Notes under the pieces: generated by a model
What the model saw: only the letters and a program-made list of their open reading frames with translations
What the model was told of the DNA's origin: nothing
The model's database searches: none
Source: Methanogenium organophilum
GTDB lineage: Archaea > Halobacteriota > Methanomicrobia > Methanomicrobiales > Methanomicrobiaceae
Direction: 5' to 3'
DNA: 64,000 nt
Assembly: GCF_026684035.1 (NCBI RefSeq)
Contig: NZ_CP113361.1
Location: 1,922,001 to 1,986,000 of the forward strand
Part shown: one piece after another, positions 39,386 to 58,019 of the stretch
Numbering within the stretch: the stretch's first letter is position 1
Layout: each line of letters opens with the position of its first letter
Translations under genes and position numbers: made by a program

Positions 39386-40303
39386 ATGCAGGGAGATTAT
39401 TTTTCAGAGTGGCTTCCCCGGTTCCTGCACCACCTGAGAATGAGGAATTATTCGCCAGGGACGATTGAAAGTTATGGGCGTGTGATCCGAAAATTTGGAT
39501 ATTATCTTTGGATTAGTCGTACAAAGGGTGCGGGGAAATTAGTGGTCTACTGGCAGGATCTGGCACATGCCCGGCTTGATACGGAGGTTGATACCACTCC
39601 AATAATTATTGATGATTTTCTGGCCTTTTTGGCGTCATTGCGTGATTACAAGGCCACAACCCTGCAGAGAATTATATCATCACTGTCGTCATTTTACCGG
39701 TATCTGTATGCGCAGGGCGCTATCGAAACCAATCCTCTTCTGGCAGTGGACCGGCCCAGAATAAAGGAGAAGGAGATCAAATATCTCAAGCATAATCAGG
39801 TGATGCGCCTTTTGGGGTCTATTCCTGATGAGGATGTCCGGGACAGGCTGATTATTCGGCTGATATATGCTACCGGGGTTCGGGTTTCTGAGCTGTGTGG
39901 TATCACGCTGTCTGATATCGATTTTGATGATCATACTATTCGGGTTTTGGGAAAAGGGGGAAAAATACGGACTGTATTTGTTGATGAAGAGACGCTTGAT
40001 GAGATTGATCGGTTTACCGGTGGGCGGATTGATGGCCCTCTCTTTGTTGGGCAGATGGGGCATGCACTGTCGCCCCGTACTGTGCAGCATATCTTCAAAC
40101 AATGGGCTCCTGAGGGGATTACGCCACATAAAATTCGCCATTCGTATGCTTCTGAATTATATCGGAGATCAAAGAATCTCCGGGTTGTTCAGGAGAATCT
40201 TGGTCATTCATCGATTCAGACTACGGAAATTTATCTGCATACTGATGTTGATGAGCGGAGGACCGTATATCAGCAATATTTCCCTCTTTCGCGGAAAGAT
40301 TAG
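39386..40303 (+). CDS. xerA: Tyrosine recombinase XerA-like
   Basis: A 305-residue tyrosine recombinase. The N-terminal core-binding domain (1-115) contains NYSPGTIESYGRVIRKF. The catalytic set is complete: Arg166 (GVRVSEL), Lys190 (GKGGK), His248 and Arg251 (PHKIRHS), His274 (LGHSS) and the nucleophile Tyr283 (EIYLH), with the same spacing as bacterial XerD. Archaeal XerA resolves chromosome dimers at dif; integrases of mobile elements have the same layout, so this could be either. It stands alone in a 4.4-kb AT-rich stretch with long gene-free flanks, palindromic sites upstream, and copies of a dispersed element on both sides. A T7 run at 40317-40323 probably ends its transcript. Confidence 0.88.
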   Translation: MQGDYFSEWLPRFLHHLRMRNYSPGTIESYGRVIRKFGYYLWISRTKGAGKLVVYWQDLAHARLDTEVDTTPIIIDDFLAFLASLRDYKATTLQRIISSLSSFYRYLYAQGAIETNPLLAVDRPRIKEKEIKYLKHNQVMRLLGSIPDEDVRDRLIIRLIYATGVRVSELCGITLSDIDFDDHTIRVLGKGGKIRTVFVDEETLDEIDRFTGGRIDGPLFVGQMGHALSPRTVQHIFKQWAPEGITPHKIRHSYASELYRRSKNLRVVQENLGHSSIQTTEIYLHTDVDERRTVYQQYFPLSRKD

Positions 40304-41406: not shown

Positions 41407-42654
41407 TTACTTATTCAACCTCAAACCAACCAGAAGTGCACCAAGAGCAGTAACTATCCCTGCAAAAACAGGGAGTCCCGATGTTGTGGGGATAGGGGCG
41501 GATGGTTCCGGAGATGTGGGTGTTACTGTGGTTGCATCCGTCGTATCCGGTGTTTGTTGAGATGCGGTTGGTTCAGGTGTGGATTCGGTATCTCCAAAGG
41601 TCATGAGTGCATATGAACCGGATTCTGATATTTCTGCAACAAGTGCGTCTCCTTTCAGTTCTGTGGGGAGAATTGTCCATTCTTCACCATCGTATTCAGC
41701 AATGAACCGTGCATTTGTCTTCATTCCTTCATCGCCGGTAATTGCAAATTCTGCCGGTTCACTGAATATGAGTGATGCCGGAGATATGATGTATGCCCCG
41801 TAAATAAGATCCCATTCGTCAGGTATGTCCTTTGGATGAGAGTTTTTCATGATAAATACATCTTCAACTTCTGCTCCGGAAATCGTCTCTCTCGGCGCAT
41901 TGAGTGTTGCATGCCCATCACTTGAAGCAGTGGAGAGGTCGGTATCCGGGGTTGCGGTGGGATTTGCCGAATAATCATCATCGTCGCCGCTGCTACCTGA
42001 TGGGGATTCTGTTGGAACTGCTGTCGGGAGTGCATCGCCTACCTGGATCTTTTTATTAAGTGCTTCAGTTCCATCAACAGATACGACAATGCTGACGGTT
42101 CCCTGTTCCATATCATTAATCGTGTATGAAATTGATGAATCGTCATCTCCTGATTTCACACCGTCCAGCTCAAACGAAACGGAAACCTGATCGGCATCTT
42201 CAATCGCTTTTCCAGTGATTTCAAGCATGGATATCTCAGAGCCCTCGTTTATCTTTCCTAAACTTTCCTGATCACTAATTATCCCGCCGGGTGCCGGGTG
42301 GTCATCGCTCCAGAATCCGAGACTTTTTGTTGGGCTTTCAGGGTCTTGCTGGTATCTGAAGTTTGCCCATACAACTGATTCCGCCTGAAGTGTGACGGTA
42401 GTATCAGAGAGAGTAAATGGCATATTGAGATTATTGGATGAGAATGCAAACTCCTGGTCGGCATCAGGTGCAATTTCCGCACCGATATGCATAGAAAAAG
42501 AGCTGCTGTCTTCGAGTCCCTGTATTGTTACGGTTATTTCTCCCCCTTCCTGAATCTGGTCTGGCCCTGCAGTTATCGAGAGTGCCTGGACGCCTCCTGC
42601 AAGAAATCCCAGACACAGAATGCACAGGAATGGCATCAAGATTTTATGTGTCAT
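41407..42654 (-). CDS. Secreted membrane-anchored surface protein
   Basis: A 415-residue exported protein. It has a signal peptide (about 1-25, ending GGVQALS), a beta-rich N-terminal domain (about 26-205) that resembles cohesin- or Ig-type modules, a Ser/Asp/Pro-rich linker (about 208-245), a second beta domain (about 250-355, with EYDGEEWTILPTEL) and a Thr/Pro-rich stalk leading to a C-terminal hydrophobic anchor and short basic tail (about 388-415). It looks like a cell-surface protein on a glycosylated stalk, possibly anchored by its terminal helix or processed by an archaeosortase. It is divergent from the protease gene across 573 bp, so it may belong to the same surface programme. Confidence 0.75.
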   Translation of the reverse strand: MTHKILMPFLCILCLGFLAGGVQALSITAGPDQIQEGGEITVTIQGLEDSSSFSMHIGAEIAPDADQEFAFSSNNLNMPFTLSDTTVTLQAESVVWANFRYQQDPESPTKSLGFWSDDHPAPGGIISDQESLGKINEGSEISMLEITGKAIEDADQVSVSFELDGVKSGDDDSSISYTINDMEQGTVSIVVSVDGTEALNKKIQVGDALPTAVPTESPSGSSGDDDDYSANPTATPDTDLSTASSDGHATLNAPRETISGAEVEDVFIMKNSHPKDIPDEWDLIYGAYIISPASLIFSEPAEFAITGDEGMKTNARFIAEYDGEEWTILPTELKGDALVAEISESGSYALMTFGDTESTPEPTASQQTPDTTDATTVTPTSPEPSAPIPTTSGLPVFAGIVTALGALLVGLRLNK

Positions 42655-43227: not shown

Positions 43228-46200
43228 ATGGAATCGTTGGTTAAAAAAAGCATTTTTCTGTCTATTACATTATTTGTTCTCATTGCGGGTGCATCAGCAG
43301 CCCAATTTGACGATGATGGAGTTGACAAATTTGCGATTGTAAACCCCCCCGAGGAGGGTGGTGGGGAACGTATCCCGGTATTTCTGGTCATGAGTGATCA
43401 GCCAACCGCGACGACGTCTGTACAGACCATGAAAGCGACTGCTGCGTCAGAGCAGTATGCAGCAATGAGTGCACTTGCCGGAATAGATTCCTATGCGGCA
43501 GAGGCCGCACAGTCCTATTGGCTGGTAAATGCCATTCGTGTGGAGGCATATCCGGCAGATTTGGACAGGCTTGCTTCGCTGCCCGGCGTGGATCATATCG
43601 AACGTGATTTCACGGTGACGGTCGCAGACCCAACAGTCGAGACAATGAATGAAGTATCTCCTGATTACATTGTGGCCTCAAAAGATGAAGGTGGCGTGGT
43701 CTGGAGTGCAGATTTCATTGATGCTCCAACAGTATGGGATACTGGAAACATTGGAGCCGGAGTCAATATCTCAATTATCGACACAGGAATCGATGGAGGC
43801 CATCCCGCCTTTGGTGATCGGATTGTTGCCTGGGCGGATTTCGTCGGTGACGGGTTGACACCATATGATGACAATGGTCACGGCACCCACTGTGCGGGCA
43901 CGTCTGCCGGAGGTGTTGTGGAAACAACATATGGCGGTGACACAATTGATGTGACGCTGGGAGTCGCACCCGGTGCAAACCTGATGGGGGCGAAAGTTCT
44001 CAATGCAGCAGGCAGCGGAGATTTTTCAGTTATCCTGGAAGGTGCACAGTGGTCGGTTGTCAATGGGGCAGATGTCATCTCCATGAGTCTCGGAGGTTTT
44101 TTGGGGCCGTGGCAGGACGATTTCAGTTCTGAGAAGATTGTCGGTACTCTTAATGCCAGTTCTTCTGCTGAAGTATTCATCGAAGCGGCTCCATCTTATA
44201 ACACAAACTGGGAGCCACAGTTTATTGTTGGTGCAGTGTATGCAGAAAGCTCTGCCATTGATGAGATTGTTAGTGGTGGAAACCTGACCTTTGTGGTAAC
44301 TGATGCAACCGATGGCACTGCAACAGGCAGTGTGATTGACTGGCTTGGATTTGACACCCCCTCGAATATTTACTACTTCAAGGCACCGTATGCAGACAAT
44401 GCAGGTGCATGGACAGGTAATTGGAAAGCGACACTGACAAACAATGGAAATGAGAGTATTGATATTGATAAGATCCGGATGGCGGTCTGTTATCAGTCCA
44501 ATGGGCAGGATATTGCTTCCGATACGCTGAACAACCTGATGGAACAGGGTGTCACTGTTGTTGTCTCTGCCGGAAACAGTGGTGAATATGGTCTCGGTAC
44601 TATTGGAACACCGGGTACGGCAGAGGATGTCATCACGGTTGGTGCTACAGACTATATGATGGACTACCGTGCATCATTCAGCAGTATGGGTCCGGTTGGT
44701 TCTTTAAGTCCATATATCAAACCGGATGTCGTTGCTCCGGGTGTTGGCATTATCTCTTCATATAAGGATGGAGGATATGCAATCATGGACGGCACATCCA
44801 TGTCGACGCCTGCGGTGGCAGGGGCGGCAGCACTGATGCTTGCAGGAAACAGCAGTCTTTCCTCAGCGGATGTCAAGGACGCTTTAATGTCTTCTGCTGT
44901 CCACCTTGACGAGAATGGTCTTGTCCTTGACACAATGGTGATGAACAGTGCATATGGTGCCGGACGGGTGGACGCCTATGAAGCTGTCAACATAACAGAT
45001 GGTCTTGGGGGCACTCCGGCTGGTGACGGCGTCATCTACGAGTTCTTTGGCGGAATATTGTCAGAAAGCAGTGTTTACGGGGATGTACTCCCTGTTACTG
45101 CAGTCGCATGGAATGTCACAGGCGGCGTGCCGATGGCAGGAGAAGAGATAGAGTTCTCCGTCAGAAACTATGATCTGCCTTATGTATTTGTGAATTCGAC
45201 TGAAGTCACTGATTCGTCTGGCAATGTCCTGACTTCTCTGGACATATCCGGATATGACGCGGACAGTTATGTGGAACTAAGCATTGCATGGAATGAACAT
45301 GTGATTAAACAGGGTTTCTACAAACAGGTATTGCCTGAAGAATCTGTGGTAGGAGACTTTATTTTCAGTTCGCAGTGGTACACAGCCACACCTGATGATA
45401 CTGTACAAATCAAGTATCCGCTTTTGGATCCGGATGGTGCGCCGTACACCGATAATGTAACTCTGATAATTGGAAACTACAGTACAGACATTTACTCAGA
45501 AACTATTTCCCCGGTGGCAGGAGTGGTGTCGACTGACGTGAACCTTGGTGCATTAACAGGTGTTGCAGAAGATACGTATGATATTACTATTGACACAGTT
45601 GATGTAGGGTCTCTGGAGGTCGCTTCTGAGGAGTACATATGGTACGAATTGTCATTCTATCCGGATACAGCAATATGCAGTCCTGGTTCATCGCTTGATA
45701 TAAGTACAGTCATTACATCAGGACATCATGGTAATTCTGCCAGTACGACTGCTACTGCCACGGTGGTAACATTTAGCGAAGCCGAGATCAATTCCCTTAC
45801 AACAGAGACACGTAATTCCATCCTTGGAGGTGAAGTTACATCTCTGGATGAACTAAGATCTGATATTCAGGGGATGGGTGTCAACGAATTTTCAGAAACG
45901 TTCCCCATGGCAAATGGCATAGGTGTCTATTCTCTTGACATGCCTGCAGATGCGTATCTTGCAATGGTGTATGTAACAACACCGCTTACTGGGGTTGAAC
46001 CTACGAATGCAGCTCTGGTGTATGGTGAAATTACACCTTGGATACGTCACAGCACCACTGAGAGTTCTTTTGAGATTCCGTTCGGTGAAATGACCAGTAT
46101 CCGAAAAACATCCTCAGATTGGTCGGCAACATGGGATCAGGAAACGTATAGCAGTATCCCGGCATCAGAGGCATCACTTGGCTTTACGGTTTATTCTTAC

Positions 46201-48525
46201 ACCTTTGATGAATCTGCGAATGAGTATGTGGTAACACCAGCAGCAGATCGTCTGGTCTATCTCTATACTCCTGATGGAGTGATGAATGCCACAACCGCTG
46301 CGGACGGTACATGCGGGTTTACCCTGACCCCCGGTGAAACAGGTGACCTCGGGTATGAATATCTCGCGGTGACTGATGGGCTGTATGTATCTGATGATAC
46401 CTATGAAGGGGCTTACCCGTTCGACTACCCTACTCTGTATTCAAGGATCTCTGCAGACCTCATTACTCTTGAACCGTCTGCTCCGTCTTATAGGTCCTAT
46501 ATCATACCGGATACGGCAAGCCGCGAAATCTCGGTTGATGCAGAGGGCGATACCCGTACGATAACCATTACAAGCACTGGCCCTGATGATGAATCCATTC
46601 AGGAAAAAGGGATGTTCACCTTCGATAAGCTGGGAGAATATTTCTCATCAGAGGGCACATTCGATGCTTCAACCGTGCAGTTTGACGGAACGGTTAGTAA
46701 ATCTGTGGTAGTTCCTGAAAATGGGTCTTATGATGCAGAATTTATTCTGCTGAACCCCGTAGAAGGAAGCATTCATTATACGGGCACAACATTCGCTGAC
46801 ACATCATATGACCTGACATATCAGATCATGGATGATGTGCTCCAGGGTACATCCGTACCGGTAACGTTCACGCTTACAGATCACGATGGTAACCCGGTAA
46901 CAGGAGCGAAGGTTCTTTTGGGGCTGGGCGCTGCCGGGGGATCATTATATCCATATGGCATCTATCGGGATGCACGATATGAGAATGTCAACACCTACCT
47001 GGGAGATTACCCTGACCCATACAGTCAGGTCGACACAGGATATACTGATGCCAGTGGTCAGGTGACTCTGACATTTACTGCACCAACGTCTGCTGAACAG
47101 GCAAACCGGCTTGACCTTGGCATTCACAGTTCAGTGAACTACCAGATTATCTGTATTCACAATGACAGGCTCATTGCCACAGAGTATGATTGTTTCATGC
47201 CGGTTGCGGGAGAACTGCCTGATTTCGTACCGAGTGTGGATGCACCGCATGTGGTGAAGATCAACCGGGATGACACAGTCAAGGTTAATGATCTTAGCGT
47301 GTTAGTTACCAATGTGGGGACGGCTGATTTCGTGTACAGTAGTTCACCTGTGAAATTAACTGCAGTAGTAGGCAGCTATTCAAGCCCAACAGAATACCCT
47401 TATGACATCCTCAAAGGGGAAACAGAGGAGGTACTCTACCTGAATGTTGATGAGTCTGCAGAAACCTATGGTATTGACCCGGGGACTACCAGTCTTCCAC
47501 AGGATAAAATTGTGGAAGTAACTGTCAATCCTGAACGCACAATTGATGAACTCCGCTACGACAACAATGTCTATAACCATAATCTGAGGATCACGGCGCC
47601 CGATCTTGTAACAGAGATCATCGCACCAACAACAACGACTCAGTTCGGAGAAACACCAATTGGTGTGAAGGTCACAAACGCCGGTGAAGTCCCAAGTGTC
47701 GCAACAACCCTGAATTATATCATCACTGGGTCACCTGCCGAATCCGGCATTGCAATCGCTGCTCTTGGACCGGGTAATTCCACCACAATCTGGAAAAATG
47801 AAACTCTTACTGTGGGAGAATATACCATCACTGCAGAAGTCAACCCCGGTCATGTGACCGACTATGAGACGTCATACGCGAACAATGGGGATACAAGAGA
47901 ACTCACATCCTATGCCCACGCACCAGCATCAATTGTGCTGCCTCCGGCTGAAGTGTTGATTCCAGGTTCACAGATTGAACTCCCAATCGTTGTGGAAAAT
48001 GTCACTGGCCTTGCAGCTTTCCAGATGAATTTCAGCTACAACGCATCGGTAATTGAAGTTACTGACGTGCTTTCCGGAGATGTCGGCGGGTTTATTGGAA
48101 ACCTGGACCATGCTCAGGAAGGCTATGTAATCTTTAATGGTGCACAAATGAGCAGTGAAAGCGGAGATGTAACCGTTGCAACACTCGTAATAGATGTCAG
48201 TGGAAGCAGTGGTGATGAGACACCTCTTGAACTGTCGGCAGAACTCTGGGATATAAACGAATTTACGATTCCTGTCACTGTCACCGATGGCAGTGCAACA
48301 CTCCTCCTCTATGGAGATGCAAATGATGACGGGTTCGTGAATCAGGCAGACACCCTCAAAGTGCTCAAATGGGTGGTTGGTATTGATGCCGATAAACCAA
48401 CATTTGGTACACGCCTCTTACAGACAGATGTCACAGAGAACAGCCTTGTAGATGTGGGTGATGCAATGTTTATCGCCCAGAAAAATGCGGAATTGAGGGA
48501 TGATTACTTCAATATCATACCTTAA
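43228..48525 (+). CDS. Secreted subtilisin-like protease with CARDB, cohesin and dockerin domains
   Basis: A 1765-residue exported protease. In order: signal peptide (1-25), I9-like propeptide (about 48-130), S8 catalytic domain with Asp185 (IIDTGID), His218 (GHGTHCAG) and Ser524 (GTSMSTPAVAG). His to Ser spans 306 residues, about twice subtilisin, because a beta-rich insert (about 290-425) interrupts the domain after MSLGGFLG. A long series of Ig-like domains follows, two CARDB domains (about 1330-1460 and 1458-1565), a cohesin-like domain (about 1565-1690) and a C-terminal dockerin (1696-1757) with calcium loop DANDDGFVNQAD and a second partly degenerate loop. There is no C-terminal membrane helix, so surface attachment would have to come through the dockerin. 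GAGAGG lies 7 nt before the ATG. Confidence 0.9.
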   Translation: MESLVKKSIFLSITLFVLIAGASAAQFDDDGVDKFAIVNPPEEGGGERIPVFLVMSDQPTATTSVQTMKATAASEQYAAMSALAGIDSYAAEAAQSYWLVNAIRVEAYPADLDRLASLPGVDHIERDFTVTVADPTVETMNEVSPDYIVASKDEGGVVWSADFIDAPTVWDTGNIGAGVNISIIDTGIDGGHPAFGDRIVAWADFVGDGLTPYDDNGHGTHCAGTSAGGVVETTYGGDTIDVTLGVAPGANLMGAKVLNAAGSGDFSVILEGAQWSVVNGADVISMSLGGFLGPWQDDFSSEKIVGTLNASSSAEVFIEAAPSYNTNWEPQFIVGAVYAESSAIDEIVSGGNLTFVVTDATDGTATGSVIDWLGFDTPSNIYYFKAPYADNAGAWTGNWKATLTNNGNESIDIDKIRMAVCYQSNGQDIASDTLNNLMEQGVTVVVSAGNSGEYGLGTIGTPGTAEDVITVGATDYMMDYRASFSSMGPVGSLSPYIKPDVVAPGVGIISSYKDGGYAIMDGTSMSTPAVAGAAALMLAGNSSLSSADVKDALMSSAVHLDENGLVLDTMVMNSAYGAGRVDAYEAVNITDGLGGTPAGDGVIYEFFGGILSESSVYGDVLPVTAVAWNVTGGVPMAGEEIEFSVRNYDLPYVFVNSTEVTDSSGNVLTSLDISGYDADSYVELSIAWNEHVIKQGFYKQVLPEESVVGDFIFSSQWYTATPDDTVQIKYPLLDPDGAPYTDNVTLIIGNYSTDIYSETISPVAGVVSTDVNLGALTGVAEDTYDITIDTVDVGSLEVASEEYIWYELSFYPDTAICSPGSSLDISTVITSGHHGNSASTTATATVVTFSEAEINSLTTETRNSILGGEVTSLDELRSDIQGMGVNEFSETFPMANGIGVYSLDMPADAYLAMVYVTTPLTGVEPTNAALVYGEITPWIRHSTTESSFEIPFGEMTSIRKTSSDWSATWDQETYSSIPASEASLGFTVYSYTFDESANEYVVTPAADRLVYLYTPDGVMNATTAADGTCGFTLTPGETGDLGYEYLAVTDGLYVSDDTYEGAYPFDYPTLYSRISADLITLEPSAPSYRSYIIPDTASREISVDAEGDTRTITITSTGPDDESIQEKGMFTFDKLGEYFSSEGTFDASTVQFDGTVSKSVVVPENGSYDAEFILLNPVEGSIHYTGTTFADTSYDLTYQIMDDVLQGTSVPVTFTLTDHDGNPVTGAKVLLGLGAAGGSLYPYGIYRDARYENVNTYLGDYPDPYSQVDTGYTDASGQVTLTFTAPTSAEQANRLDLGIHSSVNYQIICIHNDRLIATEYDCFMPVAGELPDFVPSVDAPHVVKINRDDTVKVNDLSVLVTNVGTADFVYSSSPVKLTAVVGSYSSPTEYPYDILKGETEEVLYLNVDESAETYGIDPGTTSLPQDKIVEVTVNPERTIDELRYDNNVYNHNLRITAPDLVTEIIAPTTTTQFGETPIGVKVTNAGEVPSVATTLNYIITGSPAESGIAIAALGPGNSTTIWKNETLTVGEYTITAEVNPGHVTDYETSYANNGDTRELTSYAHAPASIVLPPAEVLIPGSQIELPIVVENVTGLAAFQMNFSYNASVIEVTDVLSGDVGGFIGNLDHAQEGYVIFNGAQMSSESGDVTVATLVIDVSGSSGDETPLELSAELWDINEFTIPVTVTDGSATLLLYGDANDDGFVNQADTLKVLKWVVGIDADKPTFGTRLLQTDVTENSLVDVGDAMFIAQKNAELRDDYFNIIP

Positions 48526-48542
48526 TTTCAGGAGTGGTTAAG

Positions 48543-51500
48543 ATGAAAAACATGGAATTATGTATTACAGCCCTCCTCTGCTTTGCAGTATTATGTAGTG
48601 CCGCTTCAGCGGCTACGCTCTCTATTGATCCTTCAGATATAATACTGGGCAAAGGAGAGAGCGCACCACTTGCGGTGCGGGTAGATGATGTCCAGCAGCT
48701 GGGAAGCTATGATATCACCATCAGTTGGTCTCCTTCGCTGGTATCTTTGACAGATGTTACTGCAAGCGAGTCATTTCCAACGATGAATTACACATTTCAG
48801 ACTGGTAGTGCACATATCGCAGGTCTGAATCCAACGCTGGAAGGAGTATCAGAGAGTGCAGATTTGTGCTATCTCGAATTCACCGGAATCGGAGATAATG
48901 GCGAAGTATCACCCGTTACGATATCGGTAAATGATTATGGATTCTTGAACTCAACATCAGGTGAGGAGATCCCGGTTGATACGATTGTAAATGGAAATAT
49001 TACCACAATTGTCTCAAGCACCATAGATGCACGCATCGGTCTTCCTAACAGGCAGGTATCTGTGGGTCAGGAAATGGTAATCCTCGCCAGTGTGGCAAAC
49101 CAGCGAAATTACGATACCTCTCCTTTGAATGTCAATGTGACAGTTGTGAAAGGCGGGAGTATTGTACAGAATGTGACCTACACTGATGTTATCATCCTTC
49201 CGGGGGCCACTTTTTCAGAAGAAATTTCCTGGACTCCTGCAGAAGAGGGAACATATCAGATATCAATTGCGGTAACCTCGGATGATGCAGTTATGGGCAG
49301 TCCAACCGATGAAAAAACCGTTTCATCGATTGATTACCAGCTGAGCTTCTCCGATGCGCAGGCCAGCAACCCTGGTCGTGTGCAGATGAACAACTGGTTC
49401 TCTGCGTATGCGTGGGTGAGTGCAAATAAGGCAGGTCAGGTAAACGTCAATATTGATGCGCCGGATTCGTTTGAAATATGGGGTGATGAAAACCAGACCC
49501 GGTATTTCTATAACAGCGAATGGAATTATTTCTCAGTCTGGATGAAGGCAACTGAGCCAGGCACTTTCAGTGGAAATGAATTTACGTTCACCATATCAGC
49601 AAACGGGAAAAGCGATTCAGTAAATGGCCGCGACATTACAATCTTTGTCCCTTCAATACAGGTAACTTCAGTCAATTCAGCAAGAGTTACATCTGAGAAC
49701 ACACCGGTAACGATGGAGTTTAACACCCTCCATACGAACAACACCAACAGCAATGTCACCACACTGGTTGCCCAGTCGGGTGCACAGGGACGGACCCTTT
49801 CCGGGCTTGGATATCTGGTTGGGTACCCATATGGCTGTGTGGAACAGACGACATCAAAGATGCTCGCCTCACTCAATGTGAAAAACTACTATCTTGAACG
49901 TGGAGATCGGCCTAGTGATTTTGATACAATCCGTGAACGGGCAAATGAGTCTGTCAGCGCCGGAATTGACGTGCTGGTAAATGGTGGACTTCGTGGTCAG
50001 CATGCTGATGGCGGATGGAGTCTCTGGGGATATGGCGACTCTGAATCATCGTCCAGTTCTTATGCAAGCTACACACTTGCCAAGATCAACAAAACGGGTG
50101 AAGACCTAAATAGTCTGCTTGATGGAAAGGTCTCTACCGGTAATACTGTTACTACTGGGACTGTGAATTTCGAGAAACTCATTGAATGGTTCCACGAGAA
50201 TCCTGACAATCCGGCATCCGGTACCTGGTCCTGGAGTGCACCTGTCTGCCATGCCTGGACAAAGGAGTCCAACACGGCGTTTATCATGCTCATCCATGAC
50301 ATGATCAATCAGACCAGTGACGTGCAGCAGCCATACCGGGGTTACATGGAAGAGAACATGCAGAACGCGACCAGCTATGTCATTGGAAACCAGGTTAGTG
50401 GCGGATTTGATGACGGTTCGTTCTCATCCGGCAGTGACAAAGCCATGGCAACCGCACTTGGTCTCTGGGGTCTGGAATCCTTTGGTCTGCCATCCGGTAC
50501 AGTTACCGAACCGGTAATCACTGATGCAAAAGAGAGAGCTGCGGCATATCTTATACGGAGTCAGAATGATGATGGTTCATGGCCTGCAGCTCCCTATTAT
50601 GGATGGTATAATAAAGGCCGCGTAACTGAGAGCACAGCATATGCAATTCTTGCCCTGAATGCAACAGGCGTTGCAAATGATAACGAAACTATCAGAAATG
50701 GTGTCACATGGCTCGTTGATACGTATGAGAACAGTGGAAGCTGGGGATACACCTGGGCCAGTCAGGCAGCAATTGATGCACTCATAGTATGCCAGGAAGA
50801 AGAAAGCTCTTCAGGTACCGTGAATGTATTTGTTGACGGAGACCTGGTGTACACGTTCACCATGGATGCAACCAACCCGCGTGAGGAGTACACACTTACT
50901 TCGGACCAGATGACAGCAATGATGAGCAGTGGCACTGAGTTCAGGGATATCTTCGGTGATGGCTACAGCATCGTGAAATCACATGAAGTAGAAGCACAGC
51001 TCACATCAGGAGATGGACCTATTGTTCTCTCAGTTGAGAACAGCCAGTGGGCACCGCTCAATGAAATCGACAACACTATCAGCGGTTCAGGCACCATCCA
51101 GATGGAGGGTGACGATGGCAGTGTCGGAATTTCCCGGATTAACACAAATATCGACATCCTTGCAGAAGCCGAGTATGATGTTGGAGATTTCTCTCTGACG
51201 GTTGACTCTGTTCCCTCCCCGATGGAGGTAGATGAACCTGCAACCGTCAGCGTTGGTGTTATCTCTGACTATGATCTGTACTCCCCGATGCTTGAAGTGC
51301 CGATTTCAGACTTCACCTTCGATAACACATCTGATATTACTGACAGTACCGGCGCTGATGTTTCCTATGAAATACTCAACAGTACAGCAACCATTGGACA
51401 GGACTCCATCTTCATCCAACCCGAAAGCTGGGAACAGGACACTGCCTACTCCTACAACTTTGAAATTGTTCCGGAAAATTATGGAACGCTCAATATGTCG

Positions 51501-52361
51501 GTTAGGATCATTCCGTTATATGACGACAGTGATGTCTCATATATCAGGCATGACTTTAATGTAACAGGAACAGGCAATGTGACCATCCATGTTCAGGATG
51601 AGAATTATGCACCGGTTGTTGCAGACACGATTACGGTTGATGGTGTCACGGTCAATGTTCAGTCATCGCATGATTTCACCGGTCTTTTGGAGGACACCTA
51701 CCAGTTCAGTGTCACAAAGACAGGATACCCGGATGTGCACGGCACAGTTGAGGTTAATTATGGTGAGACAACGGTGTACAATGTAACCCTGCCATCGTCG
51801 ATGGACGAACCTGTTCTGATTCTTGCAGAGGGCGGTTCCGGCTGTATTGCAGGTGTGGCAAAGGTTCCGGGTGAGCTTAATGCAAATGTTGCTGAATCCA
51901 CAATCTACAATGTTTCAGTGATGGGAGATGGTGGTGAACTTGGTGTTGCACTTCAGTTCCCCCAGCGGTATCTCTTTACGGCCCCGGTTGTAACGCTGAA
52001 TGGTGTTGCGCTTGGAGCGGATGAGTATGAGATAACTCCGGGTACGTTTGTGTATGGACCTGGTGGAACCTACACCACAACAAATGCAACACTTGTTGTG
52101 TATAACACAACTTCGGGAACCAACTATATTGGAATGGAGTTTGATGGCGATGTATGGGGAGATGCATATAATGATGGACTTGTGGATTCAACTGATGCAT
52201 TATATATCCTTCATTTCGTGGTAGGCAACCTGGATGGATTTGAAACATATGGGTATCCGGATGTTTATGACAGAGACTCCCATACAATTGACTCGACTGA
52301 TGCACTTTACATTCTCCATAGAGTTGTGGGTAATCTTGATGAATACTACTCAGTGAGATGA
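48543..52361 (+). CDS. Secreted alpha-2-macroglobulin-like thioester protein with cohesin and dockerin
   Basis: A 1272-residue exported protein with signal peptide (1-24), cohesin-like domain (about 25-155), CARDB/Ig-like domains (about 160-400), a thioester domain (about 415-760), further beta domains including a PEGA-like one (about 1010-1085), and a C-terminal dockerin (about 1201-1270) with two STDALYILHxVVGNL helices. The segment PYGCVEQTTS places Cys432 and Gln435 as in the CxEQ thioester of alpha-2-macroglobulins. The following alpha/alpha-toroid repeats (DGGWSLWGYG, DDGSWPAAPY, SGSWGYTWAS) fit that domain. Family members trap proteases or attach covalently to surfaces. I cannot identify a bait region. 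GGAG at 48531-48534 is spaced for the ATG at 48543 rather than the GTG at 48534. It follows the protease gene by 17 bp. Confidence 0.85.
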   Translation: MKNMELCITALLCFAVLCSAASAATLSIDPSDIILGKGESAPLAVRVDDVQQLGSYDITISWSPSLVSLTDVTASESFPTMNYTFQTGSAHIAGLNPTLEGVSESADLCYLEFTGIGDNGEVSPVTISVNDYGFLNSTSGEEIPVDTIVNGNITTIVSSTIDARIGLPNRQVSVGQEMVILASVANQRNYDTSPLNVNVTVVKGGSIVQNVTYTDVIILPGATFSEEISWTPAEEGTYQISIAVTSDDAVMGSPTDEKTVSSIDYQLSFSDAQASNPGRVQMNNWFSAYAWVSANKAGQVNVNIDAPDSFEIWGDENQTRYFYNSEWNYFSVWMKATEPGTFSGNEFTFTISANGKSDSVNGRDITIFVPSIQVTSVNSARVTSENTPVTMEFNTLHTNNTNSNVTTLVAQSGAQGRTLSGLGYLVGYPYGCVEQTTSKMLASLNVKNYYLERGDRPSDFDTIRERANESVSAGIDVLVNGGLRGQHADGGWSLWGYGDSESSSSSYASYTLAKINKTGEDLNSLLDGKVSTGNTVTTGTVNFEKLIEWFHENPDNPASGTWSWSAPVCHAWTKESNTAFIMLIHDMINQTSDVQQPYRGYMEENMQNATSYVIGNQVSGGFDDGSFSSGSDKAMATALGLWGLESFGLPSGTVTEPVITDAKERAAAYLIRSQNDDGSWPAAPYYGWYNKGRVTESTAYAILALNATGVANDNETIRNGVTWLVDTYENSGSWGYTWASQAAIDALIVCQEEESSSGTVNVFVDGDLVYTFTMDATNPREEYTLTSDQMTAMMSSGTEFRDIFGDGYSIVKSHEVEAQLTSGDGPIVLSVENSQWAPLNEIDNTISGSGTIQMEGDDGSVGISRINTNIDILAEAEYDVGDFSLTVDSVPSPMEVDEPATVSVGVISDYDLYSPMLEVPISDFTFDNTSDITDSTGADVSYEILNSTATIGQDSIFIQPESWEQDTAYSYNFEIVPENYGTLNMSVRIIPLYDDSDVSYIRHDFNVTGTGNVTIHVQDENYAPVVADTITVDGVTVNVQSSHDFTGLLEDTYQFSVTKTGYPDVHGTVEVNYGETTVYNVTLPSSMDEPVLILAEGGSGCIAGVAKVPGELNANVAESTIYNVSVMGDGGELGVALQFPQRYLFTAPVVTLNGVALGADEYEITPGTFVYGPGGTYTTTNATLVVYNTTSGTNYIGMEFDGDVWGDAYNDGLVDSTDALYILHFVVGNLDGFETYGYPDVYDRDSHTIDSTDALYILHRVVGNLDEYYSVR

Positions 52362-52367
52362 TCACCA

Positions 52368-53084
52368 ATGGATAATTTTTTTTTATGGATGTTTTCAGTG
52401 TTCACGATTCTATTTTGTCTTGTAACAACAGTTGGAGCAGCAGATGTAGTACTTGATAATGATTCACTTCTCGTAAACGGAGTAAATGACAGCATTGGTC
52501 TTGGGGCTTTTAGTGTGGTTCTGACCTATAGTGAGAATGTAAGCATACAGTCTGTGGAGGGCGAATCAGGGTTTATGGTCGCATCAAATATCCAAAATAA
52601 TAAATATGAGACTTTTATTGCAGGGATCTCTAGTGAAGGTCTGACTGGTGATATTCCGGTTGCTTCTGTAAGCATAACAGGTTCCGGAGATATTGAAGTA
52701 TTCGTAAGGGAACTTGTTAATGTGAAAGGAGACCCGATTTCTTTCACAAATGCAGAATTTGTTGGGGTTGTGCCCGCTCCGGCATCCGGTGGTGAAGAGA
52801 CTATTCATGACATTTCTGTTTCTGATTACGAAGAAACTCCTTTAGAACAACAAGTTACAACAACAGCAAAAACACCGGAAGCTACCGTGAAAGAAACCGA
52901 AACTCCTGTTGATACTATTATCAATACTCCGGCATCTCCGACACAGGCAACCTCTGGAGATAATGATATTTCGGTAGTTCCGGATGCGAATGAGAATACA
53001 GTTCCACCAACACAATCACCGTTTAATATCATTGTTGTTCTAATTGCAATTGGAAGCGTATATATATTAAAAAACAAAAAATGA
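52368..53084 (+). CDS. Small membrane-anchored cohesin protein
   Basis: A 238-residue exported protein with signal peptide (1-24), one cohesin-like domain (about 25-140, with GAFSVVLTYSENVSIQSVEG and SVSITGSGDIEVFVREL), a Thr/Pro/Glu-rich stalk (about 145-212) and a C-terminal membrane helix with a short Lys/Asn tail (IIVVLIAIGSVYILKNKK). It has no enzyme domain and no dockerin, so it looks like a cell-surface receptor for dockerin-bearing proteins. It starts 6 bp after the thioester-protein stop and is followed 51 bp later by a large surface protein. The cohesin call is by sequence pattern and gene company; cohesins are highly divergent. Confidence 0.75.
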   Translation: MDNFFLWMFSVFTILFCLVTTVGAADVVLDNDSLLVNGVNDSIGLGAFSVVLTYSENVSIQSVEGESGFMVASNIQNNKYETFIAGISSEGLTGDIPVASVSITGSGDIEVFVRELVNVKGDPISFTNAEFVGVVPAPASGGEETIHDISVSDYEETPLEQQVTTTAKTPEATVKETETPVDTIINTPASPTQATSGDNDISVVPDANENTVPPTQSPFNIIVVLIAIGSVYILKNKK

Positions 53085-53135
53085 TTCATGTTAGATAATT
53101 CTATTAGAATTGGCTTGACAAAGAAGGTATGAGAG

Positions 53136-56100
53136 ATGATGAACCAGCAAAAAAGGTTAATAGCTGTTTTAATGATCCTGTTATTATGTGTAACAGGGGC
53201 GACTGCAGCTGGAGCGGGTACGCTATCCGCATCTGATGTCACCGATGTGGCATTGGGTGAGAGTGGCGTAGTGACGTATACGTTAACAAATGATTTCGAC
53301 CCAAAAGTCGGGACATTAACCTATACAGTATATTATGATGAGACAATCGCGACGGCAGTCAGTGCTAAAAAGATTGCTATCGGTGTTGGGCCTATACCTG
53401 ATGTACTGGAAAATGGGATGGCCTTTACCATTACGGATACCGATGGTTTAGCCAATGGAGAAACTGATCTTTTCAATGTGACTTTCACCTCTAATAAAAA
53501 CGATGGAAGTAGCATGGATCTGGGGATTGTGGTTACCAATGCCAAAGATGTTTCCCTCCCTCCAACTGATCTGAAAAATTCGATTATCATTGCAAACGGC
53601 ACCTTCACCACAAGGGATGTTGTCGCCCCGGTAATTGGACCCATTACAACACCAGTCAGTGTTGGTGAAAATTTCCAGATTACTGGTCCTATTACCGAAG
53701 TCGGTGGGATGGGTACAGCAACTGCAACAATCGCGAATGCGACGTATACAAGTCCCTCTATTCCGCTAATTCTGACAGACCTTGGCAACGGTGCATACAC
53801 GTACACAGCTGATGTATCATGGCCCGTCTTTGAGAATGGGGTTGTAATTGCTGTTAATGCAGTGGATGCAGCAGGAAATGTCGCAACAGCACAGACCAAA
53901 ACGATTAATGTTGTAGACGTTGGTTTCTCAAACCCTTCACCTGCAGATGGAAGTTACATCAACATCGCCCCAACTGAAGCCTCAGTTTTCATGTCACAGA
54001 TTGACACCAGCACGGTGGCAATGACTCTCGGCGATGGCAGCACAACAACTAATCTTGTTGTTGCCATTGATGGCGATTATGCACGTGGTGCCATTCCGGT
54101 TCTTGGCGATGGTATATACTGGGTTAATGTCACCGGTACTGACACAATTGCATCAGAAGAGCGCTACCTCAACTGGACATATACCCTTGACACATCCGCT
54201 CCGACACTTGACGTAACGATCACCGATTCTGATGGGGATGGATATATCGAAGCAAATGAGGTTCTGACCTTTGACTGGGCAGTAAGCTCTCCGGGTATCA
54301 GCGGATTCAAGAATGTCGAGATCGTTGACACTGTAACATCCGAGGTTCTGTGGTCGGATACCAATGCGGACAGCAGTGCTACACAGAATTTCCCCGCAGG
54401 AAACCGTGATCTCTCATTCCGTGCATATGACAATGCAGGAAACTATGCAGCCCATGATTTCCATCTGTATAACAACTATGTTGTATGGGTGAACTCAACA
54501 AAGATTGGTACAATTGGTGGACTCAACACAGAGTTTACATCCGCAGTTGACCTTGACCTGACAGCAACCAGTATGATTGAACTCTACAATGGACGCAGTG
54601 TTTTTGCACCTGAGATTGGTACAATCACACGGCAGGTAAGGGATGTCGGTCAGGTAACGAGTGACACCTTTGTAACCGTTGACAACCGTGCGAATGCAAC
54701 ATATGCAGGCACAGACACATACCAGGAACTTTGGGTATATAACCCTACAGAGATCATCGATTTCGAGATAACCGCGCCTTCAATCACACGTGCAAGTGTC
54801 GTGATGGTTGAGGCAAACGAGTCATACCTCAATGAACTCATTGATAGTGAATCAACAAGCAATATCGACTATACGCAATTAGTAAAGCAAACTGCCTATA
54901 TCTTCATTGATGATGGATGGACACAGATTACCGTTAACGAAGACGGTTCATTTACTCAGGATAATATTGTTGGGGCACCACTGACAGTATCCGGTGATAT
55001 CACAGCGACGCTGAAGAACTCTGCAAATCAGGTTGATCTTTCCTCCGGGTTCCGGATGAGTGTTGATTCTGTTGGATTTGATGCCAGCACGAACCCGCCT
55101 GTCGGGGATTACGCAGTTGCAGCAATTGCCTTCGACGGCGACCGTATCGGTGGAATTGCGGTAATGCCGGTTGTTATCCTTGAGACAGCAGACGAGGGTA
55201 CGCTCTCTACCAACACTGTTGCTTTGGATGGAACCTTTGATGCCAGCTTCGGTTCCGACTGTAAATACTTCGGCGTCGCTCTCTATCGTGACACTGTGTA
55301 TAATGCAACAGCAACCGTTGATTTCGCAAACCTAAACCTGGATATGGTCACCGTAGACCTTTCCGTGGGCGGAGCAGCCACAGAACAGCTCTGGCATAAC
55401 ATCTACATCACCCCTGGTGCAGGAAAGTATGCAGCTGTTAAGAATGGTAACTCCCTGACCTTTGATGTGACCGGTCTTGAAGCAGGAAATTACAAGGTAG
55501 TGCTTGCAGGTCTCAGTAACAGTGGTACCGCACAAGCATTTGGTGTACACGACGTGACTATCGGCTCTGCACTCAATATAAGCGAGATTGTTGCGACACC
55601 GTACATTTACAATGCAGGTATTCAGTGGACGACTAATCTTGCAGCAAACAGTACTGTGGAGTACGGTACTACCGTTGCGTACGGAAATAATGTATCTGAT
55701 GCAAGCTATGTGCTTACACACAATCTGTTGATCAGTGGTCTGTCTCCTGTCACCCAATACCATTACCGCATAATCTCGGTTGATGAATTCGGCAACACAG
55801 CAGTTACTCCTGACGCTACTTTTGTTACCCTCTACCCCGGCGGCGGTGGCGGCGGTGGCGGTGGATCCGGTGGTTCCATTGTAACTACGACACCAGTTCA
55901 GGAATTCAACACAACCGGATATCTCCAGACAGATTCAAGTGGAATTGTTCGGGGCCCGGTATTAATCAATGCAGCTGACGGTCTCTCATTCCTCTACATT
56001 GCTCAGGGAGTGCAGGCTCTCAAGGCCAACGGTCAGCCTGTTGTGGATATTACCATTCAGCCTACAGATGACGTTCCACCATCCGGCTCATCAGTATTCT

Positions 56101-56543
56101 CATTTGCAGGCCACGCAGTAACTCTTGGACCATCAGGTGCAACCTTTAGCCCGGCAATTGAACTGACCTTCCAGCTCACCGAAGAAGAGTGGAACGCACT
56201 GAAAGATGGCGAAACATTCACAATCAAGTGGTTTAACGATGGTACTGGTGAATGGGAGAATATTCAGACCAGTGTCAATCAGGCCACTCATACGGTTACC
56301 GGCAAGATTAGCCACTTCAGTACATTTGCAGTCTTCACGCAGAGTATTGAATCCTTAACCCCTGCCGGAACAGAACAGACACCGACCCCGACCGATGTGC
56401 CGGGTGAAACCCCTGTGCCTACTGAAACCGGCGGCGAAGGTACTGAGACCGGCGGATTCCCATGGGTATGGGTAGTTGTTGTGATTGTTCTTATTGCTGT
56501 CATCGGTGGTGGATACTACTTCACACAGCAGAAGAAAGAGTAA
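53136..56543 (+). CDS. Large membrane-anchored surface protein with cohesin-like and FN3 domains
   Basis: A 1135-residue exported protein. It has a signal peptide (1-25), a cohesin-like domain (about 27-165, GTLTYTVYYDETIATAVS), a series of Ig-like domains, an acidic calcium-loop-like DSDGDGYIEANE near 363, a large beta-region (about 450-810), an FN3-like domain (about 815-899), a glycine linker (902-913), a C-terminal domain typical of methanogen surface proteins (about 920-1070, ending KISHFSTFAVFT), a Thr/Pro/Glu stalk and a membrane helix (about 1108-1129) with a basic tail. No dockerin is present. It could be a surface-layer-like or adhesion protein and a docking site for the dockerin-bearing protease and thioester protein encoded upstream. 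A T10 run directly follows the gene. Confidence 0.8.
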   Translation: MMNQQKRLIAVLMILLLCVTGATAAGAGTLSASDVTDVALGESGVVTYTLTNDFDPKVGTLTYTVYYDETIATAVSAKKIAIGVGPIPDVLENGMAFTITDTDGLANGETDLFNVTFTSNKNDGSSMDLGIVVTNAKDVSLPPTDLKNSIIIANGTFTTRDVVAPVIGPITTPVSVGENFQITGPITEVGGMGTATATIANATYTSPSIPLILTDLGNGAYTYTADVSWPVFENGVVIAVNAVDAAGNVATAQTKTINVVDVGFSNPSPADGSYINIAPTEASVFMSQIDTSTVAMTLGDGSTTTNLVVAIDGDYARGAIPVLGDGIYWVNVTGTDTIASEERYLNWTYTLDTSAPTLDVTITDSDGDGYIEANEVLTFDWAVSSPGISGFKNVEIVDTVTSEVLWSDTNADSSATQNFPAGNRDLSFRAYDNAGNYAAHDFHLYNNYVVWVNSTKIGTIGGLNTEFTSAVDLDLTATSMIELYNGRSVFAPEIGTITRQVRDVGQVTSDTFVTVDNRANATYAGTDTYQELWVYNPTEIIDFEITAPSITRASVVMVEANESYLNELIDSESTSNIDYTQLVKQTAYIFIDDGWTQITVNEDGSFTQDNIVGAPLTVSGDITATLKNSANQVDLSSGFRMSVDSVGFDASTNPPVGDYAVAAIAFDGDRIGGIAVMPVVILETADEGTLSTNTVALDGTFDASFGSDCKYFGVALYRDTVYNATATVDFANLNLDMVTVDLSVGGAATEQLWHNIYITPGAGKYAAVKNGNSLTFDVTGLEAGNYKVVLAGLSNSGTAQAFGVHDVTIGSALNISEIVATPYIYNAGIQWTTNLAANSTVEYGTTVAYGNNVSDASYVLTHNLLISGLSPVTQYHYRIISVDEFGNTAVTPDATFVTLYPGGGGGGGGGSGGSIVTTTPVQEFNTTGYLQTDSSGIVRGPVLINAADGLSFLYIAQGVQALKANGQPVVDITIQPTDDVPPSGSSVFSFAGHAVTLGPSGATFSPAIELTFQLTEEEWNALKDGETFTIKWFNDGTGEWENIQTSVNQATHTVTGKISHFSTFAVFTQSIESLTPAGTEQTPTPTDVPGETPVPTETGGEGTETGGFPWVWVVVVIVLIAVIGGGYYFTQQKKE

Positions 56544-57032: not shown

Positions 57033-58019
57033 ATGACAAAATCACCGACAACAGAAGACCTTTACAGGGCCTTTGGAACAGGAATCTGGTTTCGCGATCT
57101 TGTGGGAATATTGGTATGGCTGGGAATAGCTGTTCTGACAGTATATGTCCCCTATCTGAATGAAAGTCCCCTGAGAATTGTATTTGCACTTCCGGTTGTG
57201 CTTTTTATTCCGGGATATGCACTCATTGCAGCACTCTTTCCCGGAAATGAGGAGATCGACACCCTTGAACGAATTGCGCTCTCATTTGGATTATCAATAG
57301 CTCTAGTGCCGCTGATTGGACTTGCACTAAATTATACTCCCTGGGGAATACGGCTGGACCCGATTGTCATTTCACTTGTCATCTTCACTGTCCTGATGGT
57401 GCTCGCTGCTCACTACCGGCGTGCACTGCTAGCCCCGGAAGAGCGGTTTTCGATGCCCATATGGGATTGGTATACAGAAGCAAAATCAGAACTCTTCTCT
57501 GAAGATCAGAGTTCACTTGACCGTGCACTCTCATATATTCTCATTATCGCCATTGTGGCGGCAGTTGTTACTACCATCTATGTAATCGTTGTGCCCAAGG
57601 AGGGTGAGCATTTCACTGAATTCTATATTCTGGGAGAAGAGGGGATGGCAGCGGATTATCCGGACCGGTTTTCTGTGGGCACCGCACAGCCGGTGATCAT
57701 TGGTGTGGGAAACCATGAATACAAACCTGTGGATTATATGATCGAGGTCTGGGAAATGAATCAGGAATGGATTGCCGAAGAAAACCGTTCTGAAATATAT
57801 TCAATGGATCTTTTAGACAGGTTCCCTGTCTCAGTGGCTCACAATGAGACTACTGAGATTCCCTACAACTTTACGGTAACCGATGGCGGGACAAACAGAA
57901 TCCAGTTCCTTCTCTTCATGGATGCGGTGCCTGATGATTCTGTGTCAGGTGCGGAACGGATCAATGCCTCATACCAGGATCTTCATCTCTGGGTCGATGT
58001 TCGTCCTTCATACGGGTGA
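57033..58019 (+). CDS. DUF1616 membrane protein
   Basis: A 328-residue protein with about five membrane helices: near residues 20-43, 48-70, 80-102, 108-127 and 165-188. The segment RIVFALPVVLFIPGYALIAALFP is the hallmark of DUF1616 (archaeal proteins of unknown function). The C-terminal 130 residues form an extracellular-type beta domain (GTAQPVIIGVGNHEYKPVDY) with several N-glycosylation sequons. Such proteins often lie near surface glycan or secretion genes. It comes after the surface-protein cluster and its end overlaps the convergent minus-strand gene by 59 bp. Confidence 0.85.
   Translation: MTKSPTTEDLYRAFGTGIWFRDLVGILVWLGIAVLTVYVPYLNESPLRIVFALPVVLFIPGYALIAALFPGNEEIDTLERIALSFGLSIALVPLIGLALNYTPWGIRLDPIVISLVIFTVLMVLAAHYRRALLAPEERFSMPIWDWYTEAKSELFSEDQSSLDRALSYILIIAIVAAVVTTIYVIVVPKEGEHFTEFYILGEEGMAADYPDRFSVGTAQPVIIGVGNHEYKPVDYMIEVWEMNQEWIAEENRSEIYSMDLLDRFPVSVAHNETTEIPYNFTVTDGGTNRIQFLLFMDAVPDDSVSGAERINASYQDLHLWVDVRPSYG

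What the first reader, a model, noticed from the sequence alone, without database searches (positions are those of the whole stretch)
43228..56543. Candidate archaeal cohesin-dockerin surface system built on a protease and a thioester protein
Four consecutive plus-strand genes encode exported proteins. Two (subtilisin-like protease, thioester protein) end in dockerin modules, lack a membrane anchor and also carry a cohesin-like domain. The other two carry a cohesin-like domain, no dockerin, and a C-terminal membrane helix. Cohesin-dockerin binding could hold the soluble proteins on the anchored ones. Cellulosomal systems use glycoside hydrolases; here the cargo is a protease and a macroglobulin-like protein. 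Archaeal cohesins and dockerins are known, but I do not know of this combination being described.
Basis: partly seen in the sequence, partly recalled or inferred. Interest (0 to 1): 0.85.

Follow-up and report, generated by a model that had tools for sequence, protein, structure and literature searches.

The report
Archaeal surface protease–thioester cohesin–dockerin cassette
A methanogen carries four neighbouring genes, conserved across many archaea, that appear to clip a protein-cutting enzyme and a complement-like 'covalent glue' protein onto the cell surface with the same type of plug-and-socket that bacteria use to build cellulose-digesting machines.

Summary
Four co-directed exported proteins (window 43228-56543, genus Methanogenium) are a subtilisin and a thioester (TED) protein, each with one cohesin and a C-terminal dockerin and no anchor, and two anchored proteins with an N-terminal cohesin-like domain. 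The cohesin fold is supported by Pfam, profile searches against solved cohesins and AlphaFold/Foldseek (best hit 2XDH, the Archaeoglobus fulgidus cohesin). A read-through model of the TED-protein dockerin with the 238-aa protein gave pTM 0.77, consistent with docking; binding itself is not shown.

The cassette is conserved well beyond the genus: order-wide, in an Archaeoglobaceae-type genome and in haloarchaea. In one haloarchaeon protease and TED are fused; in two genomes the protease is missing; a companion family carries either a membrane anchor or a dockerin. I conclude that dockerins act here as attachment tags for a protease/thioester surface complex. 'Capture covalently, then cut' is my preferred but unproven activity.

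Precedents: non-cellulosomal archaeal cohesin/dockerin pairs, and archaeal alpha-2-macroglobulin/TED modules (Makarova 2021). I found no description linking TED, subtilisin and cohesin-dockerin. Verdict: real, new variant of a known kind, interest about 0.63.

The parts
43228..48525 (+). Gene 1: secreted subtilisin (S8) + Ig-like region + CARDB + cohesin + dockerin, 1765 aa, no membrane anchor
43696..44925 (+). Subtilase domain (residues ~157-566; D185, H218, S524), with an insert between the two conserved halves
   Evidence: Pfam PF00082 E 5.7e-45; PDB matches in two stretches; triad invariant
47599..47886 (+). CARDB domain of gene 1
   Evidence: PF07705 26.2 bits, residues 1458-1553
47914..48306 (+). 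Cohesin of gene 1
   Evidence: PF00963 33.6 bits; AF2 model top PDB hit 2XDH TMt 0.78, E 2.6e-11
48310..48522 (+). Dockerin of gene 1 (two Ca-loop repeats GDANDDGFVNQAD and TDVTENSLVDVGD)
48534..52361 (+). Gene 2: cohesin + Ig-like + thioester (TED) + C-terminal beta domains + PEGA-like + dockerin, 1275 aa, no membrane anchor
48612..49004 (+). N-terminal cohesin of gene 2
   Evidence: PF00963 21.3 bits; profile matches gene-1 cohesin 97.8%; 2XDH E 1.9e-9 with joint profile
49689..50903 (+). Thioester (alpha-2-macroglobulin TED) domain
   Evidence: PF07678 28.5 bits, 14/14 homologues; CD109 E 2.1e-7, C3
49833..49847 (+). Thioester motif GCVEQ
   Evidence: C435, E437, Q438 invariant in 14 sequences
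52149..52358 (+). Dockerin of gene 2
   Evidence: PDB dockerins 4UYP/4UYQ E 2e-6 with profile A1; hhalign 98.4% to gene-1 dockerin; AF2 model
52368..53084 (+). Gene 3: 238-aa cohesin-like protein with Thr/Pro-rich stalk and C-terminal membrane helix
52437..52757 (+). Cohesin-like domain of gene 3
   Evidence: AF2 model pLDDT ~95 in this domain; most Foldseek PDB hits with E<=0.001 are cohesins (4DH2, 2XDH rmsd 2.5)
53136..56543 (+). Gene 4: N-terminal cohesin, Ig/Ca-loop domains, C-terminal domain ending in HFSTF, membrane helix; 1135 aa
53202..53558 (+). N-terminal cohesin of gene 4
   Evidence: PF00963 16.7 bits sub-threshold; family profile hits NagJ cohesin module 2JH2 E 3.9e-5; hhalign 93% to gene-2 cohesin
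56439..56531 (+). C-terminal membrane helix of gene 4
   Evidence: hydropathy 2.46
41407..42654 (-). Companion gene: exported 415-aa protein with C-terminal membrane helix; homologues next to the cassette in most relatives end in an anchor or, in L039/L040, in a dockerin
57033..58019 (+). DUF1616 membrane protein, often linked to the cassette, also in Haloferax
   Evidence: PF07760 E 2.8e-110; linkage

Best explanation
A membrane-tethered surface complex. The two anchored proteins (genes 3 and 4) present cohesins; the TED protein and the subtilisin are exported without an anchor and are clipped on by their C-terminal calcium-loop dockerins, while the cohesins that the two cargo proteins carry allow chains or branching. 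What is held together is a protease plus an alpha-2-macroglobulin-type thioester domain. Most likely activity: the thioester, once exposed, forms a covalent bond to a nucleophile on a foreign or neighbouring surface or protein, and the co-docked subtilisin exposes it and/or cuts what is captured. Shown: gene order, domains, conserved catalytic and thioester residues, cohesin/dockerin folds or homology, conservation, fusion. Supported by model only: the gene 2 dockerin-gene 3 cohesin contact. Inferred: calcium dependence, surface location, covalent capture, protease-TED cooperation, and the biological role (defence, scavenging or adhesion).
For: Four-gene order kept in relatives at 45-75% identity and in a divergent group at ~24%, in an Archaeoglobaceae-type genome (L160) and, with variations, in haloarchaea (L050, L158, L161). 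Dockerins sit at the C-termini of the subtilisin and TED proteins (or on the next gene downstream of TED in haloarchaea), anchors on the cohesin-only proteins. Fusion of S8 and TED in one 2668-aa protein, followed by a dockerin gene and a cohesin-like gene with a PGF-type C-terminus. CARDB/cohesin modules sit in gene 1 in one group and in gene 2 in the other. Homologues of the 415-aa companion end in a membrane anchor in some lineages and in a dockerin in others, implying that the dockerin does an anchor's job. AF2 model of gene-2 dockerin + gene-3 cohesin: pLDDT 81.7, pTM 0.77, above the roughly 0.5 I would expect if the two domains were not placed relative to each other; in the gene-1 cohesin-dockerin tandem pTM is 0.65, about the cohesin's share alone. 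Cohesin folds. Archaeal cohesin-dockerin binding is reported as verified (PMC9012536).
Against: No binding or activity data. The docking model is an artificial read-through fusion with unpaired alignment rows; five models ranged 65-82 pLDDT, and neither the predicted error matrix nor the coordinates were available. The gene-1 dockerin was modelled poorly (pLDDT <50 over most of it, 9 sequences). The first dockerin repeat of the TED protein is degenerate in L036/L037. Two related genomes keep the TED cassette without an adjacent subtilisin (L034, L042) and a third has its subtilisin-dockerin only some 14 kb away (G194), so the protease is not strictly required. Three other dockerin loci in the genome could use the same cohesins. 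The TED protein shows no recognised bait region or macroglobulin domains.
Confidence: 0.55

Rival explanations
1. Protease-inhibitor pair: the TED protein is an alpha-2-macroglobulin-like trap that restrains its co-docked subtilisin or invading proteases, as bacterial alpha-2-macroglobulins do in the periplasm.
For: TED with CxEQ conserved in all homologues; profile similarity to CD109, A2M and bacterial A2M; MG4 domain hits in the fused protein and 2 of 12 gene-1 homologues.
Against: No bait region or MG cage in the TED protein; the gene-1 Ig region does not match solved macroglobulins; a permanent fusion with the protease (L161) is odd for an inhibitor; TED persists where the protease is lost.
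Confidence: 0.15
2. Adhesion or matrix scaffold: the TED protein is a covalent adhesin, cohesin-dockerin pairs build the surface layer or cell-cell contacts, and the subtilisin only matures or sheds the surface proteins.
For: Ig, CARDB and PEGA modules typical of adhesins; CARDB and cohesin/dockerin expansion in ANME linked to adhesion in a review (PMC5244752); protease missing in two genomes.
Against: Protease adjacent or fused in about 17 of 20 cassettes, with catalytic residues intact, suggests more than housekeeping maturation.
Confidence: 0.2
3. Surface proteolysis for nutrition or turnover: a tethered subtilisin cuts extracellular protein; TED and cohesins merely keep it at the cell.
For: Strong S8 domain with intact triad and, in 6 of 12 homologues, an I9 propeptide match.
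Against: The TED protein is conserved even without the protease and is itself a large conserved protein with an intact thioester motif.
Confidence: 0.1
4. The cohesin-like domains are only Ig-like structural modules and the dockerins bind elsewhere (for example the ~3606-aa membrane protein) or nothing.
For: Gene-3 domain has only weak sequence similarity to cohesins; another cohesin exists in the genome.
Against: Fold matches are dominated by cohesins; dockerins and anchored cohesin genes stay linked across the phylum.
Confidence: 0.15

Closest known systems
Non-cellulosomal archaeal cohesin/dockerin proteins of Archaeoglobus (AF2375/AF2376; cohesin structure 2XDH)
   Same: A soluble protein bearing both cohesin and dockerin beside a small cohesin protein (that plan seen directly in an Archaeoglobaceae-type relative, L187); gene-1 cohesin's best structural match is 2XDH.
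   Different: The relative's soluble protein has no protease or thioester domain; here there are two dockerin cargoes and two anchored cohesin proteins.
Archaeal alpha-2-macroglobulin/TED modules (Makarova et al. 2021, PMC8416519)
   Same: Same TED family with CxEQ, in Halobacteria and Methanomicrobia, including Haloferax gibbonsii (our L050 species); endoproteases noted in some neighbourhoods.
   Different: [quoted passage not shown] here a fixed cassette with an attachment logic and an S8-TED fusion are seen.
Bacterial cellulosome
   Same: Cohesin-dockerin fold pair, dockerin on the enzyme, cohesin on anchored proteins.
   Different: No multi-cohesin scaffoldin, no glycoside hydrolases or carbohydrate-binding modules in the cassette; cargo is protease and thioester protein.
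ANME archaeal cohesin/dockerin proteins (PMC9012536)
   Same: Archaeal surface proteins with these modules and no cellulose link.
   Different: Reported cargo there is ABC-transporter binding proteins and S-layer proteins.
Subtilisin-(Dockerin)2 of Halobacterium NP_280653.1 (PMC2605481)
   Same: Archaeal subtilisin with dockerin repeats.
   Different: Reported as an isolated domain architecture, with no TED or cohesin context.

Membership tests
Cohesin-dockerin attachment systems (non-cellulosomal) | Cohesin-fold domains | tested here: met
   (weakest for gene 3)
Cohesin-dockerin attachment systems (non-cellulosomal) | Dockerin with two calcium-loop/F-hand repeats | tested here: met
   sequence motifs and profiles
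Cohesin-dockerin attachment systems (non-cellulosomal) | Specific Ca-dependent binding of dockerin to cohesin | not testable with these tools
   only a model of one pair
Cellulosome | Scaffoldin with several cohesins and a carbohydrate-binding module | tested here: not met
   one cohesin per protein, no CBM over cut-off in Pfam scans of the window proteins
Cellulosome | Dockerin-bearing glycoside hydrolases | tested here: not met
   cassette cargo is S8 and TED; other dockerin proteins are PKD/PEGA and NosD
Alpha-2-macroglobulin / TEP family | TED domain with CxEQ thioester motif | tested here: met
Alpha-2-macroglobulin / TEP family | MG1-MG6 domains with bait region in the same protein | tested here: not met
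   none in 14 gene-2 homologues
Alpha-2-macroglobulin / TEP family | Macroglobulin-like domains supplied by the partner (gene 1) | tested here: inconclusive
   MG4 in 2 of 12 and in the fused protein; no PDB macroglobulin match
Subtilase S8 | Asp-His-Ser triad | tested here: met
PGF-CTERM/archaeosortase substrates | PGF-CTERM motif on the anchored protein | tested here: not met
   not in genes 3 and 4; met in relatives L160 and L050

The most novel reading that the evidence does not exclude
A complement-like prokaryotic surface weapon: a dedicated serine protease and a thioester protein, kept in contact by cohesin-dockerin plugs (or by outright fusion), where the protease triggers covalent tagging of foreign cells or proteins, and cargo can be swapped through shared dockerins.
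Probability: 0.25. Interest if true: 0.88.

Novelty: new variant of a known kind. Interest (0 to 1): 0.63.

Why it matters
The function of cohesin and dockerin modules in archaea is described as unclear or unknown in the literature (PMC9012536, PMC5244752). Here a conserved cassette gives a defined cargo (protease + thioester protein) and a defined anchor, with fusion and anchor/dockerin exchange in relatives as natural evidence that the dockerin is an attachment tag. It joins two unexplained archaeal families, gives testable binding pairs, and raises the question of whether archaea have a complement-like covalent surface system.

Tried and rejected
Pfam alone: misses the gene-2 dockerin and gene-3 cohesin, so family profiles were needed. 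Split-macroglobulin idea (gene 1 supplies MG domains to TED): MG4 in 2 of 12 homologues and the fusion, but the profile of the gene-1 Ig region found no macroglobulin in PDB; left as inconclusive. Intramolecular cohesin-dockerin in gene 1: pTM 0.65 and poor dockerin confidence give no support, but the shallow alignment means no refutation. 'Cellulosome' rejected (no scaffoldin, no hydrolases). 'Protease obligatory' rejected: absent next to TED in two relatives. Identity with the Archaeoglobus two-gene unit rejected: a relative's unit is a cohesin+dockerin protein without protease or TED beside a small cohesin.
Full report
OBSERVATION. Four + strand genes at 43228-56543, 8, 6 and 51 bp apart, encode proteins with N-terminal signal-type segments; only genes 3 and 4 have C-terminal membrane helices. 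Gene 1 is an S8 subtilisin with CARDB, cohesin and dockerin; gene 2 a cohesin-TED-dockerin protein; gene 3 a 238-aa cohesin-like protein; gene 4 a 1135-aa cohesin/Ig protein.

ARE THEY COHESINS AND DOCKERINS? Gene-1 cohesin passes the Pfam cut-off (33.6 vs 24.1 bits); gene-2 (21.3) and gene-4 (16.7) cohesins are sub-threshold. With homologues, the gene-1/2 profile hits the A. fulgidus cohesin 2XDH at 1.9e-9 and the gene-4 profile hits the NagJ cohesin module at 3.9e-5. Profile-profile probabilities: gene1-gene2 cohesin 97.8, gene2-gene4 93, gene2-gene3 66, gene1-gene2 dockerin 98.4; cohesin and dockerin profiles score below 5 against the six control domains of the same proteins, but gene3-gene4 cohesin scores only 0.7, so gene 3 is the outlier. 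AlphaFold models: the gene-1 cohesin matches 2XDH (TMt 0.78, E 2.6e-11) and then cellulosomal cohesins; the gene-3 domain, modelled at pLDDT about 95, matches mostly cohesins (E from 5.8e-5; 2XDH rmsd 2.5 A, TMt 0.55), with the Ig-like YcnI also in the list.

DO THEY DOCK? Genes 2 and 3 share a reading frame, so the gene-2 dockerin and the gene-3 cohesin could be modelled as one chain by reading the intervening TGA as Trp, with the gene-3 signal peptide as a linker (alignment A5). The best model has pLDDT 81.7 and pTM 0.77. My estimate is that pTM would be near 0.5 if the two domains had no fixed relation; in the gene-1 tandem, where the dockerin was not well modelled, pTM was 0.65, about the cohesin's share. 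This is consistent with docking but is a single model pair without an error matrix or a decoy control.

CONSERVATION. Gene 2 has full-length homologues in Methanogenium and related genera. The order protease-TED-small cohesin-large cohesin is kept in L030-L033, L035-L038, L156 and L157, and in a divergent group (L039-L041) at about 24-30% identity. A phylum-wide sample gave 23 of 393 genomes with a TED match at E<=1e-15, 17 of them strong. L160 (family f9; 2,076,931-bp genome, from memory the size of Archaeoglobus sulfaticallidus, unverified) has the same four genes: subtilisin-dockerin, cohesin/CARDB/TED/dockerin, cohesin with membrane helix, and a PGF-CTERM protein. Haloarchaea (L050 Haloferax gibbonsii, L158) have subtilisin-dockerin, DUF1616, TED, a separate dockerin gene and a cohesin-like protein with a PGF-type end. 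In L161 subtilisin and TED are one 2668-aa protein. The haloarchaeal cohesin-like domains were recognised by eye and position, not by a Pfam hit.

NATURAL EXPERIMENTS. (a) The fusion shows that the two activities belong together. (b) CARDB/cohesin modules are in gene 1 in one group and in gene 2 in the other. (c) The 415-aa companion has a membrane helix here, but homologues in L039/L040 end in a dockerin: dockerin and anchor are interchangeable. (d) In G016 the first gene has no protease and is a 920-aa cohesin/CARDB/cohesin/dockerin protein, and in G011 there is no subtilisin next to TED; in G194 a subtilisin-dockerin lies some 14 kb away. By my count 17 of 20 cassettes have the subtilisin adjacent or fused; the TED protein or its neighbour carries a dockerin in all of them (first repeat degenerate in L036/L037).

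THE THIOESTER PROTEIN. TED_complement matches all 14 homologues; C435, E437 and Q438 are invariant. Against solved structures the profile aligns with CD109 over residues 335-751 (E 2.1e-7) and with C3. No macroglobulin domains or bait region were found in it. The gene-1 region between protease and CARDB is Ig-like; MG4 appears in 2 of 12 homologues and in the fusion but not in a PDB profile search.

MECHANISM. Best supported is an anchored platform (genes 3, 4) that holds two cargo proteins by dockerins; what the complex does is inferred. I favour covalent capture by TED with exposure and/or cutting by the co-docked subtilisin. The scaffold part I put at about 0.75, cooperation of protease and TED at about 0.6, the capture-and-cut activity at about 0.35; 0.55 is for the statement as a whole, weighted to the scaffold.

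WHAT IS KNOWN. Non-cellulosomal cohesins and dockerins in archaea are known and reported to bind, with unclear function (PMC9012536; PMC5244752). Archaeal TED/alpha-2-macroglobulin homologues, with Haloferax gibbonsii as example, were described in 2021 with an immunity or conflict hypothesis and endoproteases in some neighbourhoods; cohesin, dockerin and subtilisin are not mentioned in that text (PMC8416519). A Halobacterium subtilisin with dockerins was listed in 2008 (PMC2605481). The library holds only open-licence papers, so absence of a description is not proof.

VERDICT. Real, conserved and more than chance; a new variant of a known kind that joins two known but unexplained archaeal families.

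Noticed in passing
G000:C1:48910-49116, 53116-53322, 548097-548303 (L044, L045): Three more dockerins nearly identical in pattern to that of gene 1, on secreted proteins (PEGA/PKD; a short frame; NosD/PKD 1120 aa), so the same cohesins may display other cargo.
   Followed up: partly
L043:6886-17703 (-), G000:C1 about 481.4-492.2 kb: A ~3606-aa PEGA-repeat protein with a cohesin and a C-terminal membrane helix, a possible further docking platform.
   Followed up: partly
window 56313-56327 and L043: Gene 4 and the ~3606-aa protein end their C-terminal domain in HFSTF/HFSTY, resembling the autoproteolytic HFS motif of ZU5-type domains (from memory); autocleavage untested.
   Followed up: no
L034:12392-15154 and L042: In two related genomes the first gene has no protease domain, or its modules sit in the TED protein.
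   Followed up: yes
window 39386-40303: Tyrosine-recombinase-like ORF in a low-GC stretch upstream of the cassette.
   Followed up: no
Haloferax volcanii hvo_2160-hvo_2173 (PMC8241124): A cluster of N-glycoproteins that includes the largest glycoprotein (HVO_2160, archaeosortase substrate) and a DUF1616 protein (HVO_2173); could be related to the haloarchaeal cassette, not checked.
   Followed up: no
L049 (MAG labelled Nanohaloarchaea): Partial cassette: TED-dockerin, cohesin-dockerin and a cohesin-like protein reaching a PGF-type end at the contig edge.
   Followed up: partly
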